Positions 10,216 to 50,287 of a stretch of 64,000 nucleotides of DNA are shown here, in pieces (the first letter of the stretch is position 1; the number at the start of each line of letters is the position of its first letter). The notes under the pieces are model-generated. The model made no database searches. It had not been told where the DNA came from and worked only from the letters and a program-made list of their open reading frames with translations. The stretch covers positions 62,001 through 126,000 of the forward strand of contig JADLGO010000034.1 of assembly GCA_020849275.1 (NCBI GenBank), in the 5' to 3' direction. The translations under genes and the position numbers were made by a program. The stretch comes from Chthonomonadales bacterium. Its GTDB lineage: Bacteria; Armatimonadota; Chthonomonadetes; Chthonomonadales; CAJBBX01.

Positions 10216-11025
10216 CTAGGCCATCTCCTCGCATCCACGAAAGGGCATGTGCTCTCCCGCCCGGTAGCGGGGCGTCGGGTTGTAGTCGTTGACGGCTGGA
10301 AGGGCGCTCCCGCGCAGCAGGAAGGCGCTAGGCCACCGCCCCTCGGGCGTCAGCCCGCTGTCGGCCACGATGCGTGTGCTCGTCGGGATGTAGCGGATCG
10401 TCAGGCCGCAGCGGCGCAGCGGCGAACGGTTCGGATTGGAGCCGTGGATGATGTTCGGGTGGTGGACGGATACGCCACCGGCGCGCAGCACCAGGTCTAC
10501 CGCACGGGACTCGTCAACGAGCGCCGGGTCGATCTCGGAGCTCAGCACGTTGGGTACGTCGGTGCGCGGGCGCAGGCTGCTCAGCTCCATCCGATGTGTA
10601 CCCGGGATCACGCGCATGCAACCGTTCTCGGGCAGCGAGTCGTCAATGGCGAGCCAGAGCGTTACGACCTCCATCGGCTCGAGCGGCCAGTAGCTGCCGT
10701 CCTGATGCCAGAGGACTGCCTGGCCGTCATACGGCGGCTTGCAGATGTAGTGCGAGGCGAACAGCGCGATGTCCGGCCCCACAAACTCCTGGGCCACGTC
10801 GAGCAGTCGGTCGTCGCGCACGAGCCGCACCCAGAACGGATCGTCGGTCATCAGCGTGTGCCCCAGGTGCTCCGACCGCAGCCCGGGGTTCCTCTCCCGT
10901 AGCCACGCGACGTGGTCGCTCGCTTCGCGCACCAGGTCCGCGTCGATCGCGTCCGGGATAAGGGCATAGCCGTCTCGCTCAAACTGGTCGCGCGCAGCGC
11001 TTCGCGGCGATCGCGCCGTTGTCAT
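10216..11025 (-). CDS. phytanoyl-CoA dioxygenase (PhyH) family protein, intact iron site
   Basis: The protein has 269 residues, a single PhyH double-stranded beta-helix domain. The Fe(II)/2-oxoglutarate site is visible: VLWHQDG gives His107 and Asp109, and HHPNIIHGSNPNRS gives the distal His194; Arg residues in the RCGLTIRYIP strand would bind 2-oxoglutarate. The start at 11025 is preceded by GGGGAGGAGTGACGAAG, better than the frame's first start at 11079. Bacterial members hydroxylate varied small molecules; the substrate cannot be read here. It lies upstream of, and on the same strand as, the SbcD-like gene, with a 186-bp gap, and 81 bp downstream of the UroD-like gene. Confidence 0.86.
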   Translation of the reverse strand: MTTARSPRSAARDQFERDGYALIPDAIDADLVREASDHVAWLRERNPGLRSEHLGHTLMTDDPFWVRLVRDDRLLDVAQEFVGPDIALFASHYICKPPYDGQAVLWHQDGSYWPLEPMEVVTLWLAIDDSLPENGCMRVIPGTHRMELSSLRPRTDVPNVLSSEIDPALVDESRAVDLVLRAGGVSVHHPNIIHGSNPNRSPLRRCGLTIRYIPTSTRIVADSGLTPEGRWPSAFLLRGSALPAVNDYNPTPRYRAGEHMPFRGCEEMA

Positions 11026-11106
11026 CTTCGTCACTCCTCCCCAACGAGCTCGGTTCTCGATGCTGTCTGCCTCGACCACCCGCGCGCCGGCCCCGCCGGC
11101 CCCGCC

Positions 11107-48616: not shown

Positions 48617-49468
48617 TCAGTCGGCGAAACGCAGCGGAAGGTCGCGCCAGTAGTGCTGGAGGTTGGCCGACTGCCAGCCCGAATAGAGCTCGTCCCACGC
48701 GACCCCCCCATGGTGCGGCTCGAACGAGGCGCGCGCCACCGGGCGCGATACGGCCTGGTAGCGGAAGTCGACCGATAGGCGTAGCAGGCGACCGGAGAGG
48801 TTCGGGAGCGCCCGGTGCACCGTGAGACTATGGAACGCGAGCAGGTCGCCGGCGGCGTACTCCGGCTCGGCCCAGTCGAAGGGGAGCGCCCTGGCCTCGA
48901 CACCCTTGCCGCCCGGGCCATAGGCAACCTGAGTCGGCAAGACACCCGCGCGGTGTGAGCCGGGCATCACGGCGAGGCTCCCCAGCGTGCGGGGGCAGTC
49001 GCCCAGCGGGATCCAGGTGGTCCAGGTCTCCTCGGTGCCTCCGATGTGGATGTGGCCCTGGTGGGCTGGCGTCGTCCAGGCCTCGAAGTTCGGGAACACG
49101 ACGCGCGCGATGTTCCGCGCGTGGGGTACGATGGGTTCACCGAGCAGGCGCCCAAACACCGCGAGCAACTCGGGCCGGTGCGCGAGAGCGTGGAAGGCCT
49201 CGCAGGCCTGGATACGGCGGTAGACGCGCATGAAGGCCGGCTCACCGGGCCGATGCGCCTGGCCCGGAGCCGCCGCGCCAGCCATCGGATCGGCGCCCGG
49301 CGCGGTCCATCCTGCCTCGGCGCAGATGCCGAGGACGGCGGCGCGGACCCGCGCCAGCGCGTCGCGGCTCACGAAGTCGCGCAGGAGGAGCACGCCGTCG
49401 GCCGCCGCGCGCTTACGCAGCGCCGCTCCGTCGCCAAGCAGGGAGTTCGCGGGCTCGAGGTTGGTCAT
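48617..49468 (-). CDS. PhyH-family protein with HxG in place of HxD
   Basis: The 283-residue protein has the PhyH double-stranded beta-helix fold. The region TTPAHQGHIHIGGTEETWTT aligns with HQD-x-x-H-I of related proteins, but the iron-binding Asp (residue 138) is Gly. The distal ligand is intact (AFHSLTVHRALPN, His218) with Arg in RLLRLSVDFRYQ for 2-oxoglutarate. Such HxG or HxA sites are known in Fe/2-oxoglutarate halogenases, where the open coordination site takes a halide; alternatively the enzyme is inactive. The length is typical. It is divergent from another PhyH gene 123 bp away. The start at 49468 has a weak ribosome site. Confidence 0.82.
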   Translation of the reverse strand: MTNLEPANSLLGDGAALRKRAAADGVLLLRDFVSRDALARVRAAVLGICAEAGWTAPGADPMAGAAAPGQAHRPGEPAFMRVYRRIQACEAFHALAHRPELLAVFGRLLGEPIVPHARNIARVVFPNFEAWTTPAHQGHIHIGGTEETWTTWIPLGDCPRTLGSLAVMPGSHRAGVLPTQVAYGPGGKGVEARALPFDWAEPEYAAGDLLAFHSLTVHRALPNLSGRLLRLSVDFRYQAVSRPVARASFEPHHGGVAWDELYSGWQSANLQHYWRDLPLRFAD

Positions 49469-49591: not shown

Positions 49592-50287
49592 GTGAGCGAT
49601 TCCGCTCGATTGTTCGCCGAGCAGGGCTTCATCGTGGTCCCTCGTCTTCTTGACGCCGGCGAGGTGCCGGGGATCAAGGAGGAGATCGGGCGCATCCTGT
49701 CCGCCGCTGGCCCAGGAGTCGCCGAGACCGGCGTCTTCGTGGGCCTGGCCGCCAGCAGCGCCGCTCTCCGCGCGCTCGCTGCCGACGCGCGCATCCTCGA
49801 CGTGCTGGAGCCACTGATCGGACCGGACATCGAGTTCCTCAGCGACAAGGTCGTGTATAAGTCGGCCGCGACAGCCTATGGCTCGCCCTGGCACCAGGAC
49901 TGGCCCTACTGGAAGGGCGCGCACAAGCTCAGTGTATGGATCGCGCTCGACCGGGCCACGCCGGAGAACGGCTGTCTGAAGCTGCTGCCCGCAAGCCATC
50001 GCACCGTCGCCGAGCATACCGGCGCCATCGCTGCAGGCGCAGTTCCCGCCTTCGTTCACCGGCTCGACGAGGATGCCGTCGACGAGAGCCAGGCCGTGAC
50101 CGCCCCCCTGGAGCCAGGGGGCGCCGTCGTGTTCCACGATCTGCTGCTGCACGCCTCGCACCCCAACCGCAGCGGCGCCGATCGCTGGGCCCTGATCAGC
50201 ACCTATCGCAGCGCCGCGGAGGCCGACCTGGACTACGAGTGGTCGGTGGCCGCCGCCGTCGTGCGGGGCGAGCGCCGGGCGCCATGA
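49592..50287 (+). CDS. PhyH-family dioxygenase, intact iron site
   Basis: The 231-residue protein starts at a GTG with GGAGGGGAGAGG upstream. It has SPWHQDWPYW (His101, Asp103), IALDRATPENGCLKLLPASH and VVFHDLLLHASHPNRS (distal His186), with Arg197 or Arg205 as possible 2-oxoglutarate ligand. All residues for Fe(II)/2-oxoglutarate chemistry are present. It is shorter than the divergent partner, which lacks the Asp. Its stop overlaps the next start (ATGA at 50284-50287), coupling it to a membrane protein. The substrate is unknown. Confidence 0.85.
   Translation: MSDSARLFAEQGFIVVPRLLDAGEVPGIKEEIGRILSAAGPGVAETGVFVGLAASSAALRALAADARILDVLEPLIGPDIEFLSDKVVYKSAATAYGSPWHQDWPYWKGAHKLSVWIALDRATPENGCLKLLPASHRTVAEHTGAIAAGAVPAFVHRLDEDAVDESQAVTAPLEPGGAVVFHDLLLHASHPNRSGADRWALISTYRSAAEADLDYEWSVAAAVVRGERRAP

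What the first reader, a model, noticed from the sequence alone, without database searches (positions are those of the whole stretch)
48617..49468. PhyH protein with HxG instead of HxD: possible halogenase-like site or inactive enzyme
The iron site reads AHQGHIHIGG where close relatives have HQD; residue 138 is Gly (codon GGC on the minus strand), while the distal His218 and the Arg of RLLRLSVDFRYQ remain. Loss of the carboxylate ligand is the hallmark of Fe/2-oxoglutarate halogenases (SyrB2 HxA, WelO5 and BesD HxG). The rest of the fold is intact, so decay is not obvious. A divergent PhyH gene 123 bp away keeps its Asp, giving an internal comparison.
Basis: partly seen in the sequence, partly recalled or inferred. 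Interest (0 to 1): 0.7.

Follow-up and report, generated by a model that had tools for sequence, protein, structure and literature searches.

The report
Oxygenase missing one iron-binding residue
One bacterial iron enzyme has glycine where every examined relative has the iron-holding aspartate, while the rest of its active site is preserved; this may mark an unusual two-histidine enzyme, but nothing found singles it out as a chlorinating enzyme.

Summary
Window 48617-49468 (minus strand) encodes an intact 283-aa PhyH protein, closest in sequence and predicted fold to the hydroxylase PtlH. Its iron site reads H136-Q-G138 (codon GGC, 49057-49055). The distal His218 and Arg230 remain. In 43 relatives covering this region, including one from the same bacterial family and the nearest own-genome paralogue (50% identical), residue 138 is always Asp. 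Of 20 columns invariant in all other rows, G138 is the only one this protein breaks. No new acidic residue sits nearby, so the ligand has not simply shifted. The HxG variant was not found elsewhere: 0 hits in 84,980 species genomes (narrow pattern), and nothing above chance in the phylum's 291 genomes except the window.

So this is a change on one lineage, seen in one assembly, not a conserved halogenase clade. HxG alone does not identify a halogenase: AspH is a natural HxG hydroxylase, FIH keeps some activity with Gly, and most engineered D-to-G/A oxygenases gained no halogenation. The protein scores 11 bits against the chlorinating-enzyme model (cut-off 226) and lies among unrelated genes. 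Preserved iron and 2-oxoglutarate residues slightly favour a working two-histidine enzyme over a recently dead one. Halogenation stays possible (about 15%).

The parts
48617..49468 (-). P0001, 283-aa PhyH-family Fe(II)/2OG oxygenase of the PtlH/AgnC6 type
   Evidence: intact ORF; Pfam PF05721 E=6.7e-17; PDB best match PtlH 2rdn E=1.7e-14; AF2 model pLDDT 78.7, best fold match PtlH E=8.6e-19
49061..49063 (-). codon of H136, first iron-binding His (invariant in family)
49055..49057 (-). codon GGC of G138, in place of the Asp iron ligand found in all 43 relatives covering the site
49040..49042 (-). codon GGA of G143; Q, E or R in 41 of 41 core relatives, but Gly at the aligned position of PtlH and of Granulicella WP_157478274
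48815..48817 (-). codon of H218, distal iron-binding His (invariant)
48779..48781 (-). codon of R230, predicted 2OG C5-carboxylate Arg (invariant in family; aligns with the RMS Arg of PtlH)
   Evidence: role inferred from PhyH/PtlH
49592..50287 (+). divergently transcribed second PhyH gene (231 aa) with HQD intact; about 23% identical to P0001, not a recent duplicate

Best explanation
P0001 descends from a PtlH/AgnC6-type Fe(II)/2-oxoglutarate oxygenase with the usual His-x-Asp...His triad. On its own terminal lineage it lost the Asp ligand (one GAC to GGC change). I think it most likely still binds Fe(II) through H136 and H218 and 2OG through R230, with water or a small anion in the vacant third site, and works as a two-histidine oxygenase on an unknown small molecule. 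Hydroxylation or another oxidation, as in AspH and FIH D201G, is somewhat more likely than halogenation. Shown here: the missing ligand, its invariance elsewhere, the preserved remainder of the site, the PtlH-like fold, and the absence of a substitute acidic residue. Inferred: metal binding, activity, reaction type and substrate.
For: Of 20 columns invariant in the 44 other rows (30 in the 41-row core set), P0001 breaks only D138 and keeps H136, Q137, W152, D208, H218, R230, D234 and R236. If the gene had drifted neutrally at the branch's average rate, at most 12-18% of its terminal branch could have been neutral at P>=0.05 (a rough bound). The ORF is intact, with normal codon-position GC of 0.75/0.54/0.88. 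The AF2 model has pLDDT 78.7, with the core mostly above 90 and PtlH as best match. No P0001-specific acidic residue lies in the iron strand. [quoted passage not shown]
Against: The HxG state is seen in one genome only and no other member shares it, so there is no conservation of HxG itself to prove selection for it. P4H D414G, with neither hydroxylase nor halogenase activity (PMC2767507), and most plant 2ODD D-to-G/A mutants show that the change often kills activity (PMC12346261). P0001 has the longer branch of its pair (0.86 against 0.56) and the most departures from conserved columns in its clade, 20 against 6-19, which hints at some relaxation.
Confidence: 0.42

Rival explanations
1. A recently inactivated enzyme or pseudoenzyme: the D138G change destroyed catalysis and the gene has not yet decayed, or the protein keeps a binding role only.
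For: Single-base, single-lineage change with no HxG relatives; longer branch and more departures from conserved columns than its neighbours; P4H D414G is dead (PMC2767507); eight of ten plant 2ODD D-to-G/A mutants gave no halogenation and FLS D230G showed no activity (PMC12346261). The genome has about 30 other PhyH genes, so loss of one may be tolerated.
Against: All other invariant residues, including both His and the 2OG Arg, are kept, and the ORF is intact. Dead genes are usually lost quickly in bacteria (general knowledge).
Confidence: 0.37
2. An Fe(II)/2OG halogenase: chloride or bromide takes the vacated site and is rebounded to a substrate radical, as in SyrB2, WelO5 and BesD.
For: HxG with both His and the 2OG Arg kept; PhyH fold shared with SyrB2 and CytC3; DAH shows that a single late D-to-G change can complete such a switch (PMC12346261). 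Most characterised natural HxG/A members are halogenases (general knowledge).
Against: No halogenase among the closest sequence or fold matches; 11 bits against the chlorinating-enzyme cut-off of 226; no member of that family above cut-off in 291 genomes of the phylum; no carrier protein, NRPS or other biosynthetic gene found among the neighbours scanned; HxG not conserved. Second-shell chloride contacts could not be tested.
Confidence: 0.15
3. A base error in the assembled genome; the real codon is GAC (Asp) and the enzyme is ordinary.
For: One base separates GGC from GAC; one assembly only; no reads were available.
Against: Assembly is 99.92% complete with 0.69% contamination; no homopolymer or frameshift at the site. 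Consensus base errors are rare compared with real substitutions (general knowledge).
Confidence: 0.06

Closest known systems
PtlH, 1-deoxypentalenic acid 11-beta-hydroxylase (PDB 2rdn/2rdq/2rdr/2rds)
   Same: Best PDB match by sequence (E=1.7e-14; profile 5.9e-25) and by fold (E=8.6e-19, TM 0.68-0.75); His136, His218 and Arg230 align with its His, His and Arg
   Different: PtlH has Asp where P0001 has Gly138; about 25% identity, so the substrate is probably different
AgnC6 of plasmid pAgK84 (agrocin 84 cluster)
   Same: 39.6% identity over 96% of P0001; same PhyH subfamily
   Different: AgnC6 reads TPAHQDYW (Asp present) and sits in an antibiotic cluster; P0001 does not
Fe/2OG halogenases SyrB2, CytC3, WelO5, BesD, DAH
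   Same: loss of the carboxylate ligand (HxG/A) with both His kept
   Different: no close sequence or fold relation found; no family-level conservation of HxG; no biosynthetic context; CytC3 only E=0.06 and biotin halogenase BtnX E=1.3 to the family profile
AspH (natural two-His HXG hydroxylase) and FIH D201G
   Same: HXG...H site without carboxylate that still hydroxylates (PMC10947486)
   Different: other 2OG oxygenase families (general knowledge); AspH acts on EGF-like domains

Membership tests
PhyH (Pfam PF05721) | profile score above curated cut-off | tested here: met
   62.9 bits against cut-off 22
PhyH (Pfam PF05721) | His-x-Asp/Glu...His iron triad | tested here: not met
   HQG138; Asp in all 43 relatives covering the site; halogenase members of the superfamily also lack it
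PhyH (Pfam PF05721) | 2OG-binding Arg after distal His | tested here: met
   R230 present and invariant; aligns with the PtlH Arg
Fe/2OG halogenase | Gly or Ala in place of Asp/Glu ligand | tested here: met
   G138
Fe/2OG halogenase | membership of a known halogenase family (TIGR01762 chlorinating enzyme) | tested here: not met
   11 bits against 226.3
Fe/2OG halogenase | HxG conserved among orthologues | tested here: not met
   all relatives HxD; 0 hits in 84,980 genomes for the exact TTPAHQG...IxG context; phylum hits other than the window are at control level
Fe/2OG halogenase | biosynthetic context (carrier protein, NRPS, tailoring genes) | tested here: not met
   neighbours: ParB, phosphoglycerate dehydrogenase, PhyH, ceramidase-like, UbiD, PAP2; some halogenases act outside large clusters
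Fe/2OG halogenase | halide binding and C-halogen bond formation | not testable with these tools
   needs purified protein
PtlH-type hydroxylase | closest solved relative and same fold | tested here: met
PtlH-type hydroxylase (NF045813) | equivalog cut-off | tested here: not met
   56.2 bits against 550: same kind of enzyme, not the same enzyme

The most novel reading that the evidence does not exclude
P0001 is an independently evolved Fe/2OG halogenase (or another anion-rebound enzyme) that arose by a single Asp-to-Gly change inside the PtlH/AgnC6 hydroxylase group, in a phylum where no genome held here has a chlorinating-enzyme family member above cut-off, with close HxD relatives as a natural before-and-after pair.
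Probability: 0.14. Interest if true: 0.65.

Novelty: new variant of a known kind. Interest (0 to 1): 0.33.

Why it matters
If the protein is active, it adds a natural two-histidine Fe/2OG enzyme in a subfamily where none was found here, and offers HxD relatives at 50-57% identity for testing what beyond the lost carboxylate decides between hydroxylation, halogenation and inactivity. If it is dead, it is an ordinary case of recent loss of function in a genome with about 31 PhyH genes.

Tried and rejected
1) The search for related loci with P0001 in genome contigs found no relatives, and a family alignment found none in viral contigs. 2) A global scan for the HxG context TTPAHQG...IxG found nothing. 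It covers only that exact context: the matching HxD pattern hits 13 of the family's relatives among the fetched loci, so it misses members with TTPPHQ or TTPSHQ. 3) A looser pattern in the 291 phylum genomes found the window plus four hits, about equal to the backwards-pattern control, and taken as chance. 4) Ligand shift to another acid: rejected, no lineage-specific acid in the iron strand. 5) Ligand shift to H139 or H141: weakened, because relatives with intact Asp also carry His at those positions. 6) G143 as a co-adapted change: PtlH and a Granulicella relative have Gly there with Asp intact, so it carries little weight. 7) A first AF2 run with three window rows was useless (pLDDT 34); viral PhyH rows fixed this. 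No coordinates were delivered, so metal-site distances were not measured. 8) dN/dS was not attempted, as relatives are at most 57% identical.

Full report
What is there. The coordinates, strand and motif are right. Window 48617-49468 minus translates to a 283-residue protein with H136-Q137-G138 at the iron site and H218 as the distal histidine. Pfam assigns PhyH (E=6.7e-17). The nearest solved structure by sequence is PtlH, the 1-deoxypentalenic acid 11-beta-hydroxylase (E=1.7e-14; with the family profile 5.9e-25). Its four best PDB matches are the PtlH entries, followed by SnoN and SnoK; no halogenase is among the first 50.

Is the Gly unusual? I collected the family from the own genome and from the 291 held genomes of the phylum. 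In all 43 rows that cover the site, residue 138 is Asp, including L016 from the same bacterial family (52%), L014 (57%, the closest) and the own-genome paralogue L002 (50%). The family's members on plasmids, AgnC6 of the agrocin 84 cluster (39.6%) and a Granulicella protein (41.8%), also have HQD. All viral PhyH rows used for the model have HxD, as do all the other own-genome PhyH sites that I read. A scan of 84,980 species genomes for the same context with Gly gave no hit. It is a narrow pattern: the Asp version finds 13 of the fetched relatives. A looser pattern in the phylum gave the window and four chance-level hits.

Where did it arise? A maximum-likelihood tree places P0001 beside L016 (support 81/60, weak), inside a clade whose other members are all HxD. 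The Asp-to-Gly change therefore lies on the terminal branch of P0001. It needs one base change, GAC to GGC.

Decay or function? Of 20 columns invariant in the other 44 rows, P0001 departs only at D138. In a 41-row core set the figure is one of 30. The kept residues include both iron histidines, R230 and W152. If the gene had been evolving neutrally at its own average rate, zero further hits would limit the neutral period to about 12-18% of the branch. This is a rough bound, and a recent inactivation remains compatible. On the other side, P0001 has the longer branch of its pair (0.86 against 0.56) and 20 departures from well-conserved columns against 6-19 for others of its clade. Relative-rate counts against L016 are not significant.

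Could another residue replace the Asp? No acidic residue in the iron strand is specific to P0001. His at 139 and 141 occurs in relatives that keep Asp, so neither is an obvious replacement. Gly at 143 is unique within the core set but is found in PtlH and in the Granulicella relative. I could not measure distances because the model's coordinates were not delivered.

Is it a halogenase? The missing carboxylate is needed for the known Fe/2OG halogenases but does not suffice. AspH is a natural HXG hydroxylase, and FIH keeps some activity with Gly, though not with Ala or Glu (PMC10947486). P4H D414G has neither hydroxylase nor halogenase activity (PMC2767507). Of ten plant oxygenases changed D to G or A, two gave alternative outcomes and still preferred hydroxylation, and in the natural history of DAH the D-to-G change came late, after other changes (PMC12346261). 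P0001 scores 11 bits against the chlorinating-enzyme model with a cut-off of 226, and no genome of the phylum has a member above the cut-off. The neighbours are ParB, phosphoglycerate dehydrogenase, a second PhyH gene, a ceramidase-like protein, UbiD and a PAP2 phosphatase, not a biosynthetic cluster. The family's contexts vary: L014 lies next to genes that look by sequence like leucine biosynthesis genes, and L016 next to a gene resembling an ABC-transporter permease (by eye).

Conclusion. I give a working two-histidine oxygenase 0.42, a recently inactivated enzyme or pseudoenzyme 0.37, a halogenase 0.15 and a base error 0.06. It is a new variant within a known kind, of moderate interest because close HxD relatives make it testable.

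Noticed in passing
own genome G000: 31 PhyH matches in one 4.8-Mb genome, a large expansion of the family; three lie in the window (10219-11079 minus, 48617-49468 minus, 49592-50287 plus).
   Followed up: partly
L095:8977-10002: AgnC6 of the agrocin 84 cluster on pAgK84 is a 39.6%-identical member of this PhyH subfamily, with HQD intact; it may hint at the chemistry of the group.
   Followed up: partly
L003 (G000:C6:4155-5759): Two divergent members of the same subfamily (38-39% identical to P0001) sit in tandem; both keep HxD but depart from many conserved columns.
   Followed up: no
G225:C50:15124-15840: A relative of P0001 in another genome of the phylum has an in-frame TAA, a possible pseudogene of this family.
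   Followed up: no
L105-L184 (viral contigs): At least 113 viral contigs encode a PhyH family recognised by a YISKFFP motif; the rows aligned keep HxD.
   Followed up: partly
L185 (G042:C3:288244-288669): The only weak chlorinating-enzyme (TIGR01762) match in the phylum, 77 bits and below the 226-bit cut-off.
   Followed up: no
L085: The closest relative of P0001 (L014, 57%) lies next to genes that look like isopropylmalate dehydrogenase and isopropylmalate/citramalate synthase; judged by eye only.
   Followed up: no
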